64,000 nt of DNA from Nonomuraea guangzhouensis (GTDB lineage: Bacteria > Actinomycetota > Actinomycetes > Streptosporangiales > Streptosporangiaceae): contig NZ_JAHKRM010000002.1 in the NCBI RefSeq assembly GCF_019396345.1, forward strand, positions 248,001-312,000, written 5' to 3'. The notes below the pieces were generated by a model that saw only the letters and a program-made list of their open reading frames with translations, did not search any database and had not been told where the DNA came from. A program made the position numbers and the translations under genes. This document shows, piece by piece, positions 39,865-48,488 of this stretch (position 1 is its first letter; each line of letters opens with the position of its first letter).

Positions 39865-41052
39865 ATGAGTCTCGGACCACCCATGAGCAGGGAGGGCGCG
39901 GAGTACGCGCTGCGCGCTCGTTCCGACGAGCGCGACCGCATCTCCGGCGACCTGCTCGATCTTGAAGCGCACACCACCTATCAATTACTCAAGGGCGCCT
40001 CCTTACGCGGCCCGACCCAGACCCGCTGGGCCGCCGCGCAGGGCGCGCTCGCCACGTTGTGGGCGCTTTACGACACCTACCGGGGCGTATTACGTACGGC
40101 CGAGCAGGTCAAGGGCCCCCGCGGCCGCCTCGGCGCGGAGCAGCTCGCCACCTTGACCGAGCTGCTGTCCGGCCGCTCGGTGGTCCTGAAGGCCGCCGCC
40201 AAGCCGGTCGAGGAACGCTCCCTGCTGCCCCAGGCGGACGAGCGGCTCACCCTGGACGAGACCGTCACCCGGATGGACGCCGCCTTCCAGCTGGCCACGG
40301 ACGTGCTGACCGAGATCGACACGGTCTGGTCCGCGGCGCTGCCCCGCCTCGACGCCGCCGACGCCGAGCTGCGCGTGGTGAGCGACCTGCAGCGGCAGCT
40401 CGGCGAGACCCTCGATCTGACCCAGGCGGAGGCCGAGCTGAAGCGGATGCGCGCCGCCGTACTGGAAGATCCCCTCGGCTCGGCCCCACCCGACCACGAG
40501 CTGGCCCGCGTCACCGGCGCCCTGGCGAGCACCCGCGCGGACCTGGAGCAGGCGTTGCGGGTCAGCCAGGAGTACGGCAGGCGGCGCGAGGAGCTGGCGG
40601 CCGCGCTGGACCGGGTACGGGCGGCCGAGAGCGACGCCAGGGTGGCCCACGGCACGGTCGTCGCCAAGATCGCCCTGCCGCCGCAGGCACAGCCGCGGAG
40701 CAAGGTGGACGCGCTGGCCGGCGAACTCGACGCGCTCGACGCCTCGACCGGCACCTGGCTCGACAGGTCCGGCCGGCTGACGGCGCTGGAGCAGGGCGTC
40801 GAGCAGGCCGCCCAGCAGGCGGGGGCCACGGCGAAGGCGCTGTTGGGGCTGATCGGCCGGCGGAACGAACTGCGCGGACTGCTCGGCGCGTGCCAGGCGA
40901 TGGCGGTCCGCAAGGGCCTGGCGGAGGACCCGGACGCCACCGGGCTGTACGAGCGGGCGCGGCTGCTGCTGTGGAGCGCTCCCTGTGATCTGACGAAGGC
41001 GGCACAAGCCGTCGACCTGTACCAGCGTGCGATCCACGGAGGTGGCCGATGA
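39865..41052 (+). CDS. Coiled-coil protein opening the PknG operon
   Basis: 395-residue, almost entirely helical protein with long heptad-like stretches (for example RDRISGDLLDLEAHTTYQLL, AEAELKRMRAAVLEDPLG, RREELAAALDRVRAAESDAR). No membrane segment, signal peptide or catalytic motif is visible. It is probably a cytoplasmic scaffold or adaptor. The ATG at 39865 has GGGGAG upstream; a GTG one codon earlier is also possible. Its stop overlaps the kinase start by ATGA. I do not recognise the family; the operon position suggests a structural role in the kinase complex (inference). Confidence 0.78.
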   Translation: MSLGPPMSREGAEYALRARSDERDRISGDLLDLEAHTTYQLLKGASLRGPTQTRWAAAQGALATLWALYDTYRGVLRTAEQVKGPRGRLGAEQLATLTELLSGRSVVLKAAAKPVEERSLLPQADERLTLDETVTRMDAAFQLATDVLTEIDTVWSAALPRLDAADAELRVVSDLQRQLGETLDLTQAEAELKRMRAAVLEDPLGSAPPDHELARVTGALASTRADLEQALRVSQEYGRRREELAAALDRVRAAESDARVAHGTVVAKIALPPQAQPRSKVDALAGELDALDASTGTWLDRSGRLTALEQGVEQAAQQAGATAKALLGLIGRRNELRGLLGACQAMAVRKGLAEDPDATGLYERARLLLWSAPCDLTKAAQAVDLYQRAIHGGGR

Positions 41053-43181
41053 CCGGATGCGCTCAGCCAGGCTGTACGGGCACGATCGAAGACGGCTACT
41101 GCGACCTGTGCGGGCACGCGGCGGCGGCCGCCACGTCCGTGTCCACCCCCTCATCGTCGGCCTCCTCGCCGTCCCCGGACACCCGGCCGGTGAGCCGGCC
41201 GATGACCGGCCCGCTGAGCAGTGGCCGGTCGCGGGCCGGCGTGCTGGGCGACCTCGCCGACCTGCCGTCGGTGCCCTACCGGGACCCGGCCAGCGCGATC
41301 ATGGCCAATCCCGAGGTGCCGGAGGAGAAGCGGTTCTGCGCCAACCCGGCGTGCGGCGAGCCGGTCGGCCGCTCCAGGCAGGGACGCGCCGGGCTGCCCG
41401 ACGGGTTCTGCCCGCACTGCCGTACCCAGTTCTCCTTCACCCCCAAGCTGGGCCAGGACGACCTGGTGGCGGGCCAGTACCGGGTGCTGGGCTGCCTGGC
41501 GCACGGCGGCCTCGGCTGGATCTACCTGGCCGCCGACGAGAACCTCGACGGCCGCTGGGTGGTGCTCAAGGGCCTGCTGAACACCGCCGACGCCGAGGCG
41601 CTGGCGGCGGCGGAGGCCGAGCGGAAGTTCCTCACCACCGTCGACCACCCGAACATCGTCAAGATCATCAACTTCCAGCGCTCCGCCGGCCTCGGCTACA
41701 TCGTCATGGAGTACGTCGGCGGCCAGTCGCTGCACGAGCTGCGCCGCCAGGGCCCGTTGCCGCTGCGCGAGACGCTGATGTACGGGCGGGAGATCCTGCG
41801 CGCGTTCGGCTACCTGCACGAGCAGGGCCTGGTCTACTGCGACCTCAAACCGGCCAACGTGATCAGGGTCGGCAAGCGGCTCAAGCTCATCGACCTGGGC
41901 GCGGTCCAGCGCGTCGGCTCGCCGCCGGGCACGTCCTGGGCCACGGTCGGCTACCACGCGCCCGAGCTCGACACCCGGCCCTCGTCCGTCGCCTCCGACC
42001 TGTACACGGTGGCCAGGACGCTGGCGGTGCTGACCATCCCGTCGTTCAGCCCGGCCAAGGGCGGCGCGGAGAACCCGCTGCCGGCGGACTGCGGCAACGA
42101 GTCGTTCGCCCGGCTGCTGCGGCGGGCGACCGCGCCGGATCCCGCCGCCAGGTTCCAGAGCGCGGAGGAGATGGAGGAACAGCTCGTCGGCGTGCTGCGC
42201 GAGGTCAGCGCGGTGACGGAGGGCGTGCCGTACCCCGCGCAGTCGTCGATGTTCGGGCCCGAGCGGCTCGCGGCGGGGGCGGCGCTGGCCGCCGACCGCG
42301 GGCGGGTGTTCGACGGGCTCGACCCGCTGGAGGCGGCGGCCGCGCTGCCGGTGCCGCTGGCCGACCCCGCCGACCCGGCGGCGGGCGCGCTGGCCGGCCT
42401 GGTCGGCCGCGATCCCGACGTCCTGGTCAGCCAGGTCGAGGGGATGGCTCGGACGCCCGAGACGCTGCTGACCAAGGCCCGGCTCCTCGCCGAACAGGGC
42501 TCGGACCAGGCGCTCCAGGCGCTGGACGAGGCCGAGCGGGCACGGCCCGGCGACTGGCGGGTGACCTGGTACCGGGCCGTTCACCTGCTGGCCGCGCGGC
42601 AGGCCGGCCGGGCGGCGCAGATCTTCGACGAGTGCTTCTCGCTGCTGCCCGGCGAGTGCGCGCCCAAGCTGGGGCTGGCGTTCGCGCTGGAGTGCATGGG
42701 CGACGACCCGGTCCGCTGGTACGAGAGCGTGTGGCGTACCGACCACTCCTATGTGAGCGCCGCGTTCGGGCTGGCCAGGGCGGGCCGGATCGGGGTGCTC
42801 GACGAGGTGCCCGTCACCTCCAGCCACCGGGTGGCCGCGCAGCTCGCGGTCGTGGCCTCGGTGGCCAGAGCGCCCGGCGCCGACCCGGGCAAGCCGAACG
42901 AGCTGTCGGCCGCGGCCGACCGCCTCGACGACCTCACCCACCTCGACCCGCGCCGCCGCGAGCTGCTCATCGCCGAGCTGCTGGAGAGCGCTCTGTCCTG
43001 GCTCGACAGCGGTAAGCCGCCCGCCGGGCTGAAACTGGCGGGCGCCGAGTTCACCGAACCCGGTGTACGCAAACGGCTGGAAGGCATCTTCCGCCGCCTG
43101 GCCGTGGCCGCGAGCTCCCGCCAGGAGCGCCAGACCCTCGTCGACCAGGCCAACGCCGTGCGGCCCCGGACGTGGGTGTGA
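41049..43181 (+). CDS. pknG: PknG-family serine/threonine protein kinase
   Basis: 710-residue soluble kinase. N-terminal zinc ribbon (C4, C9, C18, C21: GYCDLCG), a disordered Ser/Pro linker, then a rubredoxin-like CANPACGEP...GFCPHCRTQFSF module at about 96-132. Kinase domain about 140-385: Gly loop AHGGLGWIYLA, lysine in WVVLKGL, catalytic VYCDLKPANV and metal site LIDLGAV, the last as in M. tuberculosis PknG. C-terminal TPR-like helices to residue 710. In mycobacteria PknG responds to amino acids through GlnH/GlnX and controls 2-oxoglutarate metabolism through GarA. GlnX- and GlnH-like genes lie downstream in the same operon, supporting the assignment. Extra N-terminal zinc ribbon is shared with two operon partners. 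Confidence 0.94.
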   Translation: MTGCAQPGCTGTIEDGYCDLCGHAAAAATSVSTPSSSASSPSPDTRPVSRPMTGPLSSGRSRAGVLGDLADLPSVPYRDPASAIMANPEVPEEKRFCANPACGEPVGRSRQGRAGLPDGFCPHCRTQFSFTPKLGQDDLVAGQYRVLGCLAHGGLGWIYLAADENLDGRWVVLKGLLNTADAEALAAAEAERKFLTTVDHPNIVKIINFQRSAGLGYIVMEYVGGQSLHELRRQGPLPLRETLMYGREILRAFGYLHEQGLVYCDLKPANVIRVGKRLKLIDLGAVQRVGSPPGTSWATVGYHAPELDTRPSSVASDLYTVARTLAVLTIPSFSPAKGGAENPLPADCGNESFARLLRRATAPDPAARFQSAEEMEEQLVGVLREVSAVTEGVPYPAQSSMFGPERLAAGAALAADRGRVFDGLDPLEAAAALPVPLADPADPAAGALAGLVGRDPDVLVSQVEGMARTPETLLTKARLLAEQGSDQALQALDEAERARPGDWRVTWYRAVHLLAARQAGRAAQIFDECFSLLPGECAPKLGLAFALECMGDDPVRWYESVWRTDHSYVSAAFGLARAGRIGVLDEVPVTSSHRVAAQLAVVASVARAPGADPGKPNELSAAADRLDDLTHLDPRRRELLIAELLESALSWLDSGKPPAGLKLAGAEFTEPGVRKRLEGIFRRLAVAASSRQERQTLVDQANAVRPRTWV

Positions 43182-44239
43182 TGGACCACACCGCCGCCCC
43201 GCGGGCGGACGTGCGGTGCCCGGTCTGCGAGGCTCCCGTGGTCACCGGCGACGCCTTCTGCGAGGCGTGCGGCCATCCGCTCGGCGCGCCTTCCTGCAGC
43301 TCCTGCGGCGCGCCGGCCGTGGACGCGGACGGCTACTGCGAGCGGTGCGGCCTGCGCCAGCCCACCGGCCGGGACCACACCGAGCTCACGCTCGACAACG
43401 GTACGGCGGGCGTGACCGACAAGGGCCTGCGACGCAGCCGAAACGAGGACGCGATGGCGCTGCTGTCCACGGACACGCGGACCGTCGTCGTGGTCTGCGA
43501 CGGCGTGGGCAGCTCGCCCCGCGCGGACGAGGCGTCGGCGGCCGCCGTGGAGGCGGCGTCCGCCGCCCTGGCCAGGGGTGTGTCCGCCGAGGAGGCGTTC
43601 GACCTGGCCGGGCGGGCCGTGGGCAAGCTGGCCACCTCGGTGGACGACGCCCCTGCCTGCACCTACGTCTCGGCGGTCGTCGAAGGCGGCCGGATCACGC
43701 TCGGCTGGGCGGGCGACTCCCGCGCGTACTGGCTGTCCCCCGGCACCCGACCGGCCGCGAACGATCCGTCCGTCGGCACCCAACCGATCGACGCCGACCC
43801 GACCGCCGGCATCCGACCGGTCAACGCGGGCCTGACCGACGCCGATCCGGTCGACGCCGATGCGACCGCCACCACCCGTCCGGTCGGGGCACATCCGCCC
43901 GCCGGGACCCGACCCGCCGAGCCCGGTCCGCCGCCAGGCGTCCGGCTGACCGGCATCCAGTTGACCGAGGACGACGCCGCGCCCACGGGCGAGATCACCG
44001 CCTGGCTCGGCGCCGACTACGGCGACGTCCGCCCGCACGTCCGCGTGCTGGAGCCGGAGCACCCGGGCCTGCTGCTCGTGTGCAGCGACGGCCTGTGGCG
44101 CTATCTCGACGGCTACACCTTCCCTTCCACCGGCAGCCCCCTGGACATGGCCCGCGTGATGCTGCGGCACGCGCTCGACTCCGGCGGGCAAGACAACGTG
44201 ACCATCGTCCTGATCCCTCTAGGAGACGCACATGGGTGA
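43181..44239 (+). CDS. PP2C-type protein phosphatase with double zinc ribbon
   Basis: 352-residue soluble phosphatase. Residues 1-60 hold two zinc ribbons (CPVCEAPV/FCEACGHP and CSSCGAPA/YCERCGLR). The PP2C domain shows SRNEDAMALL, VVVCDGVGSS, GWAGDSRAYWL, LLLVCSDGLWRYL and DNVTIVLIPL, so metal-binding acidic residues are intact. A Pro/Asp/Thr-rich insert of about 65 residues (near 188-255) replaces the usual loop after GDSRAY. The stop of pknG overlaps its ATG by one base. It probably reverses PknG phosphorylation. GTG at 43172 is a possible alternative start. Confidence 0.92.
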   Translation: MDHTAAPRADVRCPVCEAPVVTGDAFCEACGHPLGAPSCSSCGAPAVDADGYCERCGLRQPTGRDHTELTLDNGTAGVTDKGLRRSRNEDAMALLSTDTRTVVVVCDGVGSSPRADEASAAAVEAASAALARGVSAEEAFDLAGRAVGKLATSVDDAPACTYVSAVVEGGRITLGWAGDSRAYWLSPGTRPAANDPSVGTQPIDADPTAGIRPVNAGLTDADPVDADATATTRPVGAHPPAGTRPAEPGPPPGVRLTGIQLTEDDAAPTGEITAWLGADYGDVRPHVRVLEPEHPGLLLVCSDGLWRYLDGYTFPSTGSPLDMARVMLRHALDSGGQDNVTIVLIPLGDAHG

Positions 44240-45524
44240 CCAGCCCACCTTCACCCTCCACATCGACCAGAACAAGTACCTCCCGATCGACGGGCGCGAG
44301 GTGCACGCCATCCTCACGATCAACTCCACCGGCTCGGTGACCACCACGGCCGCCACCCCGGCCGAGGCCGCGGAAGTGATCATCATCGACACGTCCGGGT
44401 CGATGAGCGGCGGCAAGATCCGCGAGGCCAGGCAGGCGGCCGCGACGGCCGTGCAGACGCTGCGCGACGGCGTCAACTTCGCGGTGATCGCCGGAACCGA
44501 CCGCGCCAGGGTCGTCTACCCGCGCAACCCCCAGCTGGTCAGGGCCAACGCGGCCACCCGGGCCGAGGCGCAGCGGGCCATCGGTCAGCTGTCCGCCGGC
44601 GGCGGCACCTCGATCGGCCAGTGGCTGCACCTGGCCGCCCAGATGCTGTCGGCCCATCCGAACGCGATCAGGCACGCCATCCTGATGACCGACGGCCAGA
44701 ACAACGAGCGCGCCGACGTGTTCGCCGCCGCGCTGGCCCGCTGCGAGGGCGCGTTCGTCTGCGACAGCCTCGGCGTCGGCGACGACTGGGTGCCCGCCGA
44801 GCTGCGCAAGGTCGCCGAGGCGCTGCTGGGTACGTTCGACTTCGTCAGGAACCAGGGCGACCTGGCCGACTTCTTCCGCAAGCTCACCCAGACCTCGATG
44901 AGCAAGACCGTGGCCGAGCTGGTGATGCGGGTGTGGGTGCCGCAGACGGCGACGCTCAAGTGGGTCAAGCAGGTCTCGCCCACGCTGCTCGACCTGACCG
45001 GCAAGCGCACCGACGTGAACCCGCTGACCGGCGACTACCCGACCGGCTCGTGGGGCACCGAGGACCGCGAGTACCACCTGTGCGTCGAGGTGCCGCCCGG
45101 CCAGATCGGCAGCGAGATCCGCGCGGGCTGGGTGAAGCTGCTCCGCCCCGACACCCAGGAGGTCTTCGCCAGCGGCAACGTGCTCGCCCAGTGGACCGAC
45201 GACCTCGCCCAGTCCACCCGGATCAACGGCAAGGTCGCCCACTACACCGGCCAGGCCGAGCTGCACGAGCTGATCCAGGACGGACTGAGCGCCCGCGCGG
45301 CCGGCAACGTCGACCAGGCGACGGCCCAGCTGGCCAAGGCCAAACAGATCGCCGTCGATTCGGGCCGCGAGGACACGGCCAGGCTGCTCGACAAGGTCGT
45401 CGAGGTGGATCCGGCCTCCGGCACGGCCCGGCTGCGCAAGAACGTCGACAAGGCCGACGCCATCGAGCTCGACACGGGCTCGGTACGTACCAGCAGGCTG
45501 CGCAAGGACGGGGAGGGCAGCTGA
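44232..45524 (+). CDS. von Willebrand factor A domain protein
   Basis: 430-residue cytoplasmic protein. The VWA domain at about 45-230 has a complete metal-ion-dependent adhesion site: DTSGSMSGGK, GGGTSIGQW and MTDGQNNE. The C-terminal part is beta-rich and then helical (GNVDQATAQLAKAKQIAVDSGREDTARLLDKV). No signal peptide, so it acts inside the cell, perhaps assembling the kinase/phosphatase/FHA complex (inference). It overlaps the phosphatase gene by 8 nt and its TGA shares one base with the next ATG. Confidence 0.92.
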   Translation: MGDQPTFTLHIDQNKYLPIDGREVHAILTINSTGSVTTTAATPAEAAEVIIIDTSGSMSGGKIREARQAAATAVQTLRDGVNFAVIAGTDRARVVYPRNPQLVRANAATRAEAQRAIGQLSAGGGTSIGQWLHLAAQMLSAHPNAIRHAILMTDGQNNERADVFAAALARCEGAFVCDSLGVGDDWVPAELRKVAEALLGTFDFVRNQGDLADFFRKLTQTSMSKTVAELVMRVWVPQTATLKWVKQVSPTLLDLTGKRTDVNPLTGDYPTGSWGTEDREYHLCVEVPPGQIGSEIRAGWVKLLRPDTQEVFASGNVLAQWTDDLAQSTRINGKVAHYTGQAELHELIQDGLSARAAGNVDQATAQLAKAKQIAVDSGREDTARLLDKVVEVDPASGTARLRKNVDKADAIELDTGSVRTSRLRKDGEGS

Positions 45525-46180
45525 TGGCGACCTGCCCACAGGGCCACGCGTCGGGTGACGACGAATACTGCGACGTCTGCGGCCTCCAGATGGCCGGCTC
45601 CCCGGCACCGGCCGCGGCCACCAGCCCGGCCGGCTCCGCCGCCCCCACCGGCGCCGGGGCCGGGGCCGTGGTGGAGGACTGTCCCGTCTGCCAGACGCCA
45701 CGTGCCGGGCAGTTCTGCGAGGTGTGCGGCCATGACTACTCCGGCACCGCGCCGTCGCTGGCGCCGGTGTCCGGAGCCCGCTGGGAGGCGGTCAGCGCCG
45801 CCGATCGCGCCTACTACGACCAGGTGATCGCCGAGGGCGGTCCCGACGCGCACGTCGTCGCCTTCCCGCCGTACTGTCCCGAGCGGTCCTTCGCGCTGTC
45901 GGGCGAGCAGGTACGCATCGGCCGCCGCAGCCGGGGCCGCGACCTGCGGCCGGAGATCGACCTGACCGGCCCGCCGGAGGACCCGGGCGTGTCCCACCTG
46001 CACGCCGTGCTGCTGGCCCAGCACGACGGCTCATGGACGCTCGTCGACCCGGGCTCCGCCAACGGCACCCAGGTGAACGGCAAGCCGGTCATGGTCAACG
46101 TGCCGGTCCGGGTGGGCGCGGGCGACCGCATCCACCTCGGCGCGTGGACCGTGATCACGATCCGCGAGGGCACACCATGA
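45524..46180 (+). CDS. FHA domain protein with zinc ribbons
   Basis: 218-residue protein. N-terminal zinc ribbons (CPQGHASGDDEYCDVCG and CPVCQTPRAGQFCEVCG) flank an Ala/Pro/Gly linker. FHA domain about 125-216: RIGRRSRGRDLRPEIDL, VSHLHAVLL, DPGSANGTQVNG and GDRIHLGAWTVI. FHA domains bind phosphothreonine, so this is a likely reader of PknG phosphorylation. It is not GarA, since the conserved N-terminal ETT phosphorylation motif is absent. The ATG at 45524 follows GGGGAGGG; longer open frame upstream is antisense-like shadow. Confidence 0.92.
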   Translation: MATCPQGHASGDDEYCDVCGLQMAGSPAPAAATSPAGSAAPTGAGAGAVVEDCPVCQTPRAGQFCEVCGHDYSGTAPSLAPVSGARWEAVSAADRAYYDQVIAEGGPDAHVVAFPPYCPERSFALSGEQVRIGRRSRGRDLRPEIDLTGPPEDPGVSHLHAVLLAQHDGSWTLVDPGSANGTQVNGKPVMVNVPVRVGAGDRIHLGAWTVITIREGTP

Positions 46181-46257
46181 CCGCGGTCACAAGGACCGCC
46201 GCCGTCACCGCCGTCACAAGGACCGCCGTCGTCACCAGCCATGAGGGGGCGCCATGA
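46177..46257 (+). CDS. 26-codon micro-ORF between FHA and GlnX genes
   Basis: ATG overlaps the FHA stop (ATGA) and its own TGA overlaps the GlnX start (ATGA), so a ribosome could pass through all three. The peptide is two near-identical 9-residue repeats (VTRTAAVTA, VTRTAVVTS) plus SHEGAP; the DNA repeat period is 27 bp. It may be a real peptide or only a coupling device created by a duplication. GGGGGC before the GlnX ATG lies inside it. Confidence 0.45.
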   Translation: MTAVTRTAAVTAVTRTAVVTSHEGAP

Positions 46258-47642
46258 CCATCGTCCAGGCCGGCCGGCCCGGTCAGGCCGTGCCGGCCCC
46301 GCCGGGGACCCCGGCTCCGGCGCGCCGGAGCGTGCCTGGCCGGATCCGCGTCATCTCCGGCATCACCGTGGCCTCCCTGGCGCTGCTCTTCGCCGCGCTG
46401 GCGGCCGGGAGCACGAGCGCGCGCGACGGGCTGACGGTGATCGGCCGCGACGCGGGCCCGCAGGTCGTCGCCACCGCCGGCCTGTATCTCGGGCTGAGCG
46501 ACATGGACGCGCAGGTCGCCGACGCCCTGCTGATGGGCAAGGAGTACGGCCCCCAGCGCCAGGCCGCCATCGCCCAGTACGAACGCCGGCGCTCCGAGGC
46601 CAACCAGGCGCTGCTGAAGGCGTTCGAGCTGTCCGGCGACAACCCGGCCGAGCGGCAGACCGTCCAGTCCGTGCTCGACGGCCTCGGCCGCTACGAGCGG
46701 CTGGCCGGGCAGGCGCTGCTGCTCGACACCCAGGCCGATCACCCGGCCGGCCCGCCGCCGCAGAAGGTGGTCGAGGTGTACCGGCAGGCCACCGACCTGA
46801 TGCGGCTGGTCCTGCTCCCCCAGGCCTACAACCTGACGCTGGAGAGCGGCACGATCGTGCGGCGCACCTATGACGAGAAGAGCGTCATGGTGCCGACCGT
46901 ACGGTTCGCGGTGATCGTGGCCGGGCTGCTGGCGCTGAGCTGCCTGATCTGGCTGCAGGTCTTCCTGGCGCGGCGCTTCCGCCGGGTGTTCGGGCCGGCG
47001 CTGCTGGCCGCGACCGTCGTGACCATCGTCGCGCTGGTCGCCGGGGTGAACGTGCTCGGCCGGGATCTGCAGGAGCTGCGCACCGCCAAGGCCGACGGCT
47101 TCGACTCGGTGCTCACGCTGGCCAGGGCCCGCGCGATCAGTAACAGCCTGCACGGCGACCAGAGCCGGTTCCTGCTCGACAAGGGCCGGGCCGACACCTA
47201 CGAGCACACCTTCCTCGACAAGTCGCAGTCGGTGATCTACCTGGAGGCGGGCAACCTCGACGGCTACCAGGCCAAGGTGGCGCAGGGCGCCAAGCACTTC
47301 CTCGGCCTGCTGGGCACCGAGCTCGGCGGCAGCGACGGCGAGCGGGCGCTCGACGCGTACACCCGCTTCCAGGACGCCGACGCCAAGTTCCGCGCCCTGG
47401 CCGCCAGTGGTCAGGCCAGTGAGGCCGTGTCGGCCCGGCTGGGGACGGTCCGCGAGTCCTTCGACGCCTACGACAAGGCGCTGCTGAAACTCGCCGAGCA
47501 GCATGAGGCCGTGTTCAAGCGGGCCACGGACGCCGGCGAGAGCGCGCTCGACAACCTGTGGCGGCTGCTCCCGTTCGCGATCGGCGGCCTCGGCCTGCTG
47601 GTCATCGCCGGGGTGTGGCCACGGCTGAAGGAGTATCGATGA
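46254..47642 (+). CDS. glnX: GlnX-like four-span membrane protein
   Basis: 462-residue membrane protein. Predicted spans are near residues 32-52, 218-238, 243-265 and 438-456, giving two extracellular helical regions of about 160 residues each. The cytoplasmic N-terminus is Pro-rich, the C-terminus is short (WPRLKEYR). This topology matches GlnX of the mycobacterial glnH-glnX-pknG system, which passes the GlnH signal to PknG. It lies directly before the GlnH-like gene with ATGA overlap. Sequence identity to GlnX itself cannot be judged here; the assignment rests on topology and operon. Confidence 0.82.
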   Translation: MTIVQAGRPGQAVPAPPGTPAPARRSVPGRIRVISGITVASLALLFAALAAGSTSARDGLTVIGRDAGPQVVATAGLYLGLSDMDAQVADALLMGKEYGPQRQAAIAQYERRRSEANQALLKAFELSGDNPAERQTVQSVLDGLGRYERLAGQALLLDTQADHPAGPPPQKVVEVYRQATDLMRLVLLPQAYNLTLESGTIVRRTYDEKSVMVPTVRFAVIVAGLLALSCLIWLQVFLARRFRRVFGPALLAATVVTIVALVAGVNVLGRDLQELRTAKADGFDSVLTLARARAISNSLHGDQSRFLLDKGRADTYEHTFLDKSQSVIYLEAGNLDGYQAKVAQGAKHFLGLLGTELGGSDGERALDAYTRFQDADAKFRALAASGQASEAVSARLGTVRESFDAYDKALLKLAEQHEAVFKRATDAGESALDNLWRLLPFAIGGLGLLVIAGVWPRLKEYR

Positions 47643-48448
47643 AGCGGCTGCTACCCGCGGTGCTGGCCCTGACGGCACTGCTCGCCGGGGGGTGCGGCAT
47701 GGGCGGCCAGGAGTCGATCGAGTCCAAGGACAAGATCGTCATCGGGGTCCGCACCGACCTGCCGTCGGTCGGCGCGCGCAAGGCCGACGGCACCTTCGAG
47801 GGCTTCGACGTGGACGTGGCCCGCTACATCGCCCAGAAGCTCGGCAAGGACTTCGAGTTCATCCCGGTGCTGGCGGCCGACCGGGAGAAGGTCCTGGTCG
47901 ACGGCAAGGCCGACCTGGTGCTGGCCACGTACACGATCAGCCAGGACCGCAAGTCGAAGGTCCTGTTCGCCGGGCCGTACCACATCTCCTACCAGGACAT
48001 CCTGGTACGCCCGGACGAGCCGTCGATCGGAAACGTCCGCGACCTCAAGGGCCGCAAGATCTGCCAGGTGCAGGGCTCGAACGCGGCGCAGCGGGTCGTG
48101 GAGGAGCGCAAGGTGGCCGCGCAGGTGGTGCCGGTAAGCGACTACGCGGCCTGTATGGCGGCGCTCAAGGACCACCGGGTGGACGCGATCACCACCAACG
48201 ACGTCATCCTGGCCGGGCTGGCCATCAAGGACGGCAGCGGGCTGCGCCTGGTCAACGCCCAGTTCAACGAGCAGCGGACCGGGGTCGGCATGCACAAGGG
48301 CGACGTCGCGGGCTGCGAGGCGGTCAACCGGGCGATCACCACCATGTACCAGGACGGGACGGCCTCGAAGCTGCTGCACAAGTGGTTCGGCAAGGCCGGC
48401 CTGAACCTCAGCACCATCGCGGTCCCCCAGTTCGAGGGCTGTTCGTAA
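47639..48448 (+). CDS. glnH: GlnH-like amino-acid-binding lipoprotein
   Basis: 269-residue extracellular solute-binding protein, family 3. Signal peptide with lipobox LAGGC (C19). Domain hallmarks: DKIVIGVRTDLPSVGARKADGTFEGFDVDVARYIAQKLG, FAGPYHISYQDILVRPDE and LKGRKICQVQGSNAAQRV, typical for glutamate/aspartate binders. No permease or ATPase gene is linked, so it acts as a sensor rather than a transporter component, as described for GlnH of M. tuberculosis. Last gene of the operon; a 19-bp hairpin follows its stop. Confidence 0.92.
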   Translation: MKRLLPAVLALTALLAGGCGMGGQESIESKDKIVIGVRTDLPSVGARKADGTFEGFDVDVARYIAQKLGKDFEFIPVLAADREKVLVDGKADLVLATYTISQDRKSKVLFAGPYHISYQDILVRPDEPSIGNVRDLKGRKICQVQGSNAAQRVVEERKVAAQVVPVSDYAACMAALKDHRVDAITTNDVILAGLAIKDGSGLRLVNAQFNEQRTGVGMHKGDVAGCEAVNRAITTMYQDGTASKLLHKWFGKAGLNLSTIAVPQFEGCS

Positions 48449-48488
48449 GAACGGCGGGCCCGGGGAACTCCCCGGGCCCGCCGTTCTT
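48447..48488. terminator. Bidirectional terminator between glnH and sigA
   Basis: Perfect 19-bp GC-rich stem (48447-48465 with 48470-48488) and a 4-nt loop, overlapping the glnH stop codon and 12 nt from the convergent sigA stop. It ends with TT on one side and AA on the other, usable by both genes. Confidence 0.88.

What the first reader, a model, noticed from the sequence alone, without database searches (positions are those of the whole stretch)
39865..48448. Complete zinc-ribbon-tagged PknG signalling operon: receptor, transducer, kinase, phosphatase, reader and scaffolds
Seven genes plus a micro-ORF run in one direction, nearly all with stop/start overlaps: coiled-coil protein, PknG, PP2C, VWA, FHA, GlnX-like, GlnH-like. 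The mycobacterial glnH-glnX-pknG system is established as an amino-acid sensor. Here the same core is fused with a dedicated eraser (PP2C), a phosphothreonine reader (FHA) and two scaffold-like proteins. PknG, PP2C and FHA all begin with related CxxC ribbons (GYCDLCG, YCERCG, EYCDVCG, FCEVCG), which suggests a common zinc-dependent docking or redox signal. Inference: a self-contained phospho-relay module for glutamate/aspartate status.
Basis: partly seen in the sequence, partly recalled or inferred. Interest (0 to 1): 0.75.

Follow-up and report, generated by a model that had tools for sequence, protein, structure and literature searches.

The report
Full-kit PknG signalling operon
A soil actinobacterium carries a seven-gene operon, kept together in many actinobacteria, that joins a predicted amino-acid sensor to a protein kinase with its own likely eraser, phosphate reader and scaffold proteins, so that the well-studied mycobacterial version is likely a trimmed-down form.

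Summary
In detail: seven + strand genes (39865-48448) encode coiled-coil protein, PknG, PP2C, VWA, FHA, GlnX and GlnH, nearly all overlapping. Of the 80 best named VWA loci, 66 carry all seven on one strand and 13 of the other 14 are cut by contig ends. Two gene orders occur, swapping sensor pair and kinase block. Mycobacteria-like genomes lack the four extra genes, probably by loss. The PknG N-terminal ribbon goes with VWA/FHA: 74 of 75 loci with them have it, 10 of 13 loci without any accessory gene lack it. Corrections: the micro-ORF is a spacer; of the ribbons, only the FHA ribbon-2 profile finds another protein's, PP2C; a ribbon-tagged GarA/OdhI-like protein is encoded elsewhere; the GlnH pocket differs from the Asp/Glu-specific one at two contacts. 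Best reading: GlnH-GlnX drives PknG, which phosphorylates GarA and probably the near-invariant threonine tail of VWA, read by FHA and erased by PP2C. New variant of a known kind; no phosphotransfer was tested.

The parts
39865..41052 (+). Coiled-coil protein (CC), 395 aa, helical, family undescribed
   Evidence: No hit in Pfam, NCBIfam or PADLOC; 276 homologues at E<=0.001, 120 listed, most of the names given being 'hypothetical protein'; AlphaFold2 mean pLDDT 93.1, long helices and two 3-residue strands
41049..43181 (+). PknG-type Ser/Thr kinase, 710 aa: N-terminal zinc ribbon, Thr/Ser-rich linker, rubredoxin-like, kinase, TPR
   Evidence: PF16919 81.4, PF00069 95.6, PF16918 246.8 bits; best solved relative 2pzi PknG, E 3.8e-140
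41052..41126 (+). PknG N-terminal zinc ribbon CAQPGCTGTIEDGYCDLCG
   Evidence: Pattern in 74 of 75 loci that hold VWA or FHA; up to four tandem copies in relatives
41127..41246 (+). Thr/Ser-rich linker of PknG, candidate autophosphorylation and FHA docking region
   Evidence: 110 of 110 readable linkers have Thr in the last 40 residues, 100 of 110 have R[TS] in the last 30; role by analogy with PMC8546545 (passages)
43181..44239 (+). PP2C phosphatase, 352 aa, with N-terminal double zinc ribbon
   Evidence: PF13672, PF13240, PF12773, PF18912 over cut-off; R.NED, DG and GD[ST]R motifs in 143, 145 and 146 of 146 homologues, two further motifs as written in only 76 and 82
43217..43351 (+). Double zinc ribbon of PP2C
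   Evidence: PF12773 34.9 bits, best of 4 matches in the whole genome at E<=0.01
44232..45524 (+). VWA protein, 430 aa, with complete metal site (D53,S55,S57,T126,D154) and VWA_3_C domain
   Evidence: the five metal residues in 144 of 148 homologues, the other 4 gapped
45468..45506 (+). C-terminal tail of VWA (LDTGSVRTSR; consensus LDTRSTKTVR), candidate phosphosite Thr420
   Evidence: Thr420 in 146 and Ser417 in 143 of 148 homologues
45524..46180 (+). FHA protein, 218 aa, with two N-terminal zinc ribbons
   Evidence: PF00498 50.7 bits; R134, S157, H160, N180 invariant in 25 aligned; AlphaFold2 pLDDT 86.7, ribbon blocks 92-93 (residues 1-20) and 86-88 (51-70)
46177..46257 (+). Micro-ORF: spacer made of repeated sequence, not a conserved gene
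   Evidence: Absent in 7 of 7 relatives of the same genus
46254..47642 (+). GlnX-family membrane signal transducer, 462 aa
   Evidence: NF058618 281.9 bits, cut-off 250
47639..48448 (+). GlnH-like solute-binding lipoprotein, 269 aa
   Evidence: PF00497 106 bits; mycobacterial GlnH 6h1u E 4.1e-25; Cys after a signal peptide (LLAGGC) read from the sequence
48447..48488 (.). 19-bp hairpin closing the operon, between GlnH and a convergent sigma-70 gene
   Evidence: -44.8 kcal/mol, z -7.07, 0 of 200 shuffles as good; the simple terminator scan, which asks for a T run, found none

Best explanation
This is a seven-gene operon, conserved across several actinobacterial lineages, that would work as an amino-acid-sensing phospho-switch with its own likely writer (PknG), eraser (PP2C), reader (FHA) and scaffold proteins (VWA, coiled-coil). 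Proposed steps, all inferred: GlnH binds a small amino acid outside the cell; GlnX carries the signal across the membrane to the TPR part of PknG; PknG phosphorylates its own Thr/Ser-rich linker, the unlinked ribbon-tagged GarA/OdhI-like protein (at DTTST) and the near-invariant threonine tail of VWA; the FHA protein binds the phosphothreonine and holds kinase, VWA and coiled-coil protein together; PP2C resets the system. The zinc ribbons at the N-termini of kinase, phosphatase, reader and GarA would bring these partners together. Shown here: gene content, order, conservation, motif and ligand-site residues, and joint occurrence of PknG ribbon and module. Not shown: any binding, phosphorylation or ligand.
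For: Synteny: of the 80 best named VWA loci 66 have all seven genes on one strand, 13 of the other 14 are cut by contig ends, and L241 lacks PP2C and FHA. 45 have GlnX-GlnH in front and 20 behind (one more, L237, has an extra GlnX), so two blocks were swapped yet kept together. In 120 family genomes PknG (E<=1e-60) and VWA (E<=1e-20) occur together in 59, PknG alone in 9, VWA alone in 1, neither in 51. A member of another class (L010) has all seven genes in one neighbourhood, with GlnH and GlnX on the opposite strand. Motifs: VWA metal site, PP2C motifs, FHA core residues. VWA Thr420 in 146 of 148. One genome has the VWA ends fused to FHA in one ORF (L072). Its genus mates L083 and L085 lost VWA, FHA and CC and also the PknG ribbon. 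GarA-like protein with ribbon and DTTST, and a match to NF006914 (1162.6 bits; recalled as the 2-oxoglutarate dehydrogenase E1 model). GlnH-GlnX-PknG-GarA is supported by experiments elsewhere (PMC6069109, PMC9769921, PMC8546545; passages read), and the ETTS site of GarA is phosphorylated in S. erythraea (PMC12321487, passages).
Against: No binding or phosphorylation data. GarA-like proteins occur in most actinobacteria without PknG (GarA in 333 of 396 genomes at E<=1e-20, PknG in 26 of 396 at E<=1e-40), so the GarA ribbon is not specific to this kinase. A profile of the operon ribbons does not find the GarA ribbon (8.7 bits, E 17). Neither PknG copy's ribbon is found by PP2C or FHA ribbon profiles (E 0.8 or worse). 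Ribbon without module in L009 and L037, and the L037 genome, G410, has no VWA at E<=1e-20. The near-invariant VWA tail may be structural. Counts are not corrected for shared descent.
Confidence: 0.5

Rival explanations
1. It is simply the known GlnH-GlnX-PknG-GarA metabolic switch; PP2C is the GarA phosphatase and VWA, FHA and CC only stabilise or position the complex. No local substrate exists.
For: The core is established elsewhere (PMC6069109, PMC9769921; passages); GarA-like protein with DTTST and an NF006914 enzyme are in the genome; only the module PP2C and GarA pass the Pfam DZR cut-off genome-wide.
Against: Does not explain the near-invariant Thr420 tail of VWA, the joint loss of PknG ribbon with VWA/FHA in L083/L085, or why mycobacteria manage without the four genes.
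Confidence: 0.3
2. The kinase-PP2C-VWA-FHA block belongs to the stress or conflict systems of multicellular actinobacteria, with a different output (assembly of a VWA-based complex), and has recruited GlnH-GlnX as sensor.
For: [quoted passage not shown] A second Streptomyces-like locus pairs a ribbon-PknG with a VWA that carries its own ribbon, without GlnX/GlnH hits.
Against: None of the seven proteins matches a GTPase, MoxR or effector family in Pfam; PADLOC hits are to kinase and phosphatase models only; the sensor pair stays with the block in both gene orders.
Confidence: 0.15
3. The ribbons are redox or zinc sensors: oxidation releases zinc and shifts kinase, phosphatase and reader together, instead of docking partners.
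For: The neighbouring rubredoxin part of PknG changes activity with its metal centre (PMC8546545 and PMC6069109, passages); the FHA ribbon cysteines are invariant or nearly so in 25 aligned.
Against: Ribbon number varies from 1 to 4 in PknG, and ligands are sometimes Asp or His (L061 and L065; FHA ribbon 1), which fits binding better than redox sensing.
Confidence: 0.15

Closest known systems
GlnH-GlnX-PknG-GarA/OdhI cascade of mycobacteria and Corynebacterium glutamicum
   Same: PknG with rubredoxin, kinase and TPR parts (rubredoxin absent in corynebacteria), GlnX family transducer, GlnH-type lipoprotein, GarA/OdhI-like protein encoded elsewhere
   Different: Four extra genes (CC, PP2C, VWA, FHA) in the same operon; extra N-terminal ribbon on PknG; ribbon on GarA; altered GlnH pocket
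Kinase-PP2C-vWA theme of actinobacterial GAP1-N2 GTPase systems (PMC7159879)
   Same: Active kinase often with zinc ribbon, adjacent PP2C and stand-alone vWA
   Different: No GTPase among the seven genes; has PknG TPR, GlnX, GlnH, FHA and CC
Zinc-ribbon PP2C (NCBIfam PRK14559) and 4-Cys prefix kinases (NF045510); their cyanobacterial origin is recalled, not from a call
   Same: Ribbon in front of a phospho-signalling domain: PP2C ribbons match PRK14559 (30.2 bits); GarA ribbon matches NF045510 (23.2 bits)
   Different: Far below the curated cut-off of PRK14559 (374) and just below that of NF045510 (24); no such set of genes known to me there (recalled)

Membership tests
PknG kinases | Rubredoxin-like, kinase and PknG_TPR parts in this order | tested here: met
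   PF16919 67-134, PF00069 148-329, PF16918 396-708, all over cut-off
PknG kinases | Catalytic motifs VVLKG, CDLKPxN, DLG as in the family | tested here: met
   Residues 171, 264, 280; comparison with mycobacterial PknG motifs recalled
PknG kinases | Linked to glnX and glnH | tested here: met
PknG kinases | Phosphorylates GarA/OdhI | not testable with these tools
   GarA-like protein with DTTST present
GlnX signal transducers | NCBIfam subfamily NF058618 over cut-off | tested here: met
   281.9 vs 250 bits
GlnX kinase-G-activating protein (equivalog NF041460) | Over the equivalog cut-off | tested here: not met
   44.8 vs 780 bits
Asp/Glu-specific GlnH | Side-chain contacts Arg147, Thr162, Trp232 | tested here: not met
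   Arg and Thr kept, Trp is Tyr (window and all 77 rows of its group)
Asp/Glu-specific GlnH | Amine and carboxyl contacts Ser164, Arg169, Asp250 | tested here: not met
   Thr, Arg, Asn in the window; Asn250 only in the 7 rows of this genus among 149
GarA/OdhI (operon FHA protein) | [ED]TTS phosphomotif | tested here: not met
   0 of 138 operon FHA proteins
GarA/OdhI (unlinked protein, G000:C83) | NF041660 equivalog cut-off | tested here: not met
   179.1 vs 200 bits, over model positions 1-128 of 130; motif DTTST present: OdhI-like, no stronger claim
PP2C phosphatases | PP2C domain with metal-binding motifs | tested here: met
   PF13672 38.9 vs 24 bits; RNED, DG, GDSR, SDGL, DNV all found in the window protein
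GAP1-N2 GTPase conflict systems | GAP1-N2 / GTPase genes with the kinase | tested here: not met
   No such family among the seven proteins; genes farther away not tested

The most novel reading that the evidence does not exclude
The zinc ribbons are a pathway address: kinase, phosphatase, reader and the metabolic regulator GarA carry ribbons that gather them on the VWA/coiled-coil scaffold, so that one operon insulates nutrient phospho-signalling from the forty-odd other kinase-like genes of the cell. The textbook mycobacterial PknG system is the remnant left after scaffold and tags were lost.
Probability: 0.25. Interest if true: 0.8.

Novelty: new variant of a known kind. Interest (0 to 1): 0.55.

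Why it matters
How PknG is kept specific, which phosphatase and which reader serve it, and how GlnX acts on PknG are not settled in the model organisms (PMC9769921 calls the GlnX-PknG mode of interaction elusive; passage). This operon names candidate answers that genetics can test in harmless streptomycetes, and says which parts the mycobacterial system likely lost. It also offers a concrete candidate phosphosite (VWA Thr420) and a concrete question about what zinc ribbons do in front of signalling proteins. A GarA variant that cannot be phosphorylated doubled erythromycin yield (PMC12321487, abstract passage), so control of GarA in antibiotic producers has practical weight.

Full report
What is there. 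The window lies in a 13.7 Mb draft genome (G000:C40:248001-312000). The closest relatives of the coiled-coil protein are from Nonomuraea (95% identity), so the host is very likely a Nonomuraea. Seven genes run on the + strand with overlaps of 1 to 8 bases, except for a 73-base FHA-GlnX spacer. The operon ends at a 19-bp hairpin facing a convergent sigma-70 gene. The spacer micro-ORF is absent in 7 of 7 relatives of the genus, where the GlnX start overlaps the FHA stop.

Is it more than chance? PknG was found in 68 of 120 genomes of the family (E<=1e-60) and 26 of 396 of the phylum (E<=1e-40). VWA was found in 60 of the same 120 (E<=1e-20): both 59, PknG only 9, VWA only 1, neither 51. From the listed places I fetched 92 stretches (L009-L100); not fetched were G074, G096, G182, G325, G377, G385 and a second place in G050 and G396, G445 and G463. 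Of the 92, 49 hold all seven families and 52 all four accessory ones (hits of 60 bits or more; several stretches are cut by contig ends). All 9 Streptomyces-like stretches with the main PknG (from 9 of 10 such genomes) hold the module. All 10 mycobacteria-like stretches (from 9 of 14 such genomes) lack it; 8 of them have GlnX-GlnH-PknG, L014 and L015 PknG alone. Of the other 14, 13 are cut by contig ends; Spirillospora L241 lacks PP2C and FHA. A genome of another class (L010) has all seven, with GlnH and GlnX on the other strand.

The ribbons. The PknG ribbon (CxxPxCxG...DGYCxxCG) lies in front of a variable Thr/Ser-rich linker. It is present in 74 of 75 loci that have VWA or FHA (the miss, L093, has unread bases there). 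It is absent in 10 of 13 loci with no accessory gene (with L016 corrected); the three exceptions are L009, L037 and L092, the last on a 4.8 kb contig. The genome of L037 (G410) has no VWA at E<=1e-20, so the link is not strict. Loci with only PP2C or CC split 2 to 2. Six PknGs have two to four tandem ribbons. In the first 200 residues read, PP2C has a ribbon pattern in 68 of 69 and FHA in 64 of 67, against 0 of 73 for VWA and 0 of 61 for CC. Within one genus, L072 keeps a fused VWA-FHA ORF (without the VWA metal core) and the PknG ribbon, while L083 and L085 lost VWA, FHA, CC and the ribbon. A second Streptomyces-like locus (L022-L024) pairs a ribbon-PknG with a VWA that has its own C-terminal ribbon. 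How alike are the ribbons? Profiles trained on one protein find another's only once: FHA ribbon 2 finds PP2C (E 7e-4). PP2C profiles do not find FHA, and no PP2C or FHA profile finds the PknG ribbon (E 0.8 or worse for either PknG copy). Profile comparison gives 94-96% for PknG against FHA ribbon 1 and PP2C ribbon 2, but the rubredoxin control scores as high. In the whole genome, Pfam DZR passes its cut-off at two places only: this PP2C and the GarA-like gene (four matches at E<=0.01). A six-row profile (five operon ribbons and the GarA one) in 18 further genomes gave 63 places in 16 of them: 46 in PknG modules, 11 in GarA, 2 in the second Streptomyces-like locus and 4 elsewhere, these four at E 0.0039 or worse (sorted by distance to known places; in four genomes only 150 candidates were scored). 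GarA is a row of that profile; without that row it is not found.

GarA. The genome has an OdhI/GarA-like protein at C83 (179.1 bits, equivalog cut-off 200; FHA 75.1 bits) that starts with a CxxC-x12-CxxC ribbon followed by DTTST. Such proteins occur in 117 of 120 family genomes and 333 of 396 phylum genomes. Of 59 fetched loci 54 were readable; all 54 have the ribbon and 32 a strict [DE]TTS, but these were the best matches to a query that has the ribbon. In the 11 of 14 mycobacteria-like genomes whose row was listed, the match starts only at residues 21 to 62, which suggests that the ribbon is missing there; the same holds for G062 and G085 of other families. So GarA and its ribbon are wider, and likely older, than PknG.

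Direction of change. In a 54-sequence PknG tree rooted on the second Streptomyces-like paralogues, the mycobacteria-like clade (support 1.0) is sister to the module PknGs, and the outgroup paralogues (L022-L024, L094, L095) carry ribbon and VWA. Loss in mycobacteria-like genomes is therefore the simpler reading, with the usual caution about paralogue rooting and long branches.

Active parts. The VWA metal site is complete in 144 of 148 homologues (4 gapped), and Thr420 of the C-terminal tail is kept in 146 of 148. The FHA residues Arg134, Ser157, His160 and Asn180 are invariant in 25 (their phosphothreonine role is recalled). PP2C motifs are in place in 143 to 146 of 146 for three motifs; two further motifs as written matched only 76 and 82. 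The coiled-coil protein is confidently predicted as long helices, with no trusted structural relative. The two FHA ribbons are predicted with good confidence over most of their length. In GlnH, Arg147 is kept in 149 of 149 rows; Trp232 is Tyr in the window and all 77 of its group, Gln in 53 and Trp in 9 of 62 of the Streptomyces-like group, Trp in 8 of 8 mycobacteria-like; Asp250 is Asn in 7 rows, all of the window's genus; Arg169 is Asn in 6 others (contacts from PMC6069109, passages). An acidic ligand remains plausible; Asp/Glu specificity is not established here.

How it most likely works. [quoted passage not shown] passages). Inferred here: the same core plus a private eraser, reader and scaffold, with the VWA tail as the best local phosphosite candidate. 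What is ordinary: the GlnH-GlnX-PknG core. What seems new, as far as the listings show: the seven-gene set, the PknG ribbon, its joint occurrence with VWA/FHA, and the ribbon on GarA. PMC7159879 (passage) had already noted ribbon-kinase, PP2C and vWA as neighbours in another kind of system.

Noticed in passing
G000:C58:37816-39781 (L009:9286-11251, - strand): A second PknG with ribbon, rubredoxin and kinase part, but without TPR; the second half of a GlnX follows in another frame. It looks like a deletion remnant of a second sensor-kinase pair.
   Followed up: partly
L022:8415-12044, L023:7116-10770, L024:8614-12146: Second locus of Streptomyces-like genomes: a divergent ribbon-PknG next to a VWA whose C-terminus carries its own FCExCG zinc ribbon; no GlnX, GlnH, PP2C or FHA model hit. 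In L023 a protein that looks by eye like a trypsin-type peptidase lies next to the kinase.
   Followed up: partly
   Followed up: yes
window 48197-48199 (GlnH residue 187) and L032, L034, L037, L042, L043, L171: GlnH of this genus has Asn at the amine-binding Asp250 position; a Planobispora-type group has Asn at the Arg169 position. Possible ligand switches in two lineages.
   Followed up: partly
L052, L053, L055, L056, L057, L060: PknGs with two to four tandem N-terminal ribbons, a variable number that hints at a binding rather than a catalytic role.
   Followed up: no
G000:C83:7520-8029: The GarA/OdhI-like protein carries an N-terminal zinc ribbon in all 54 readable relatives fetched; it is apparently missing in mycobacteria-like genomes, where GarA is best studied.
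   Followed up: yes
window 48447-48488: Perfect 19-bp hairpin between the convergent operon and sigma-70 gene, able to form on both strands, without a long T run.
   Followed up: yes
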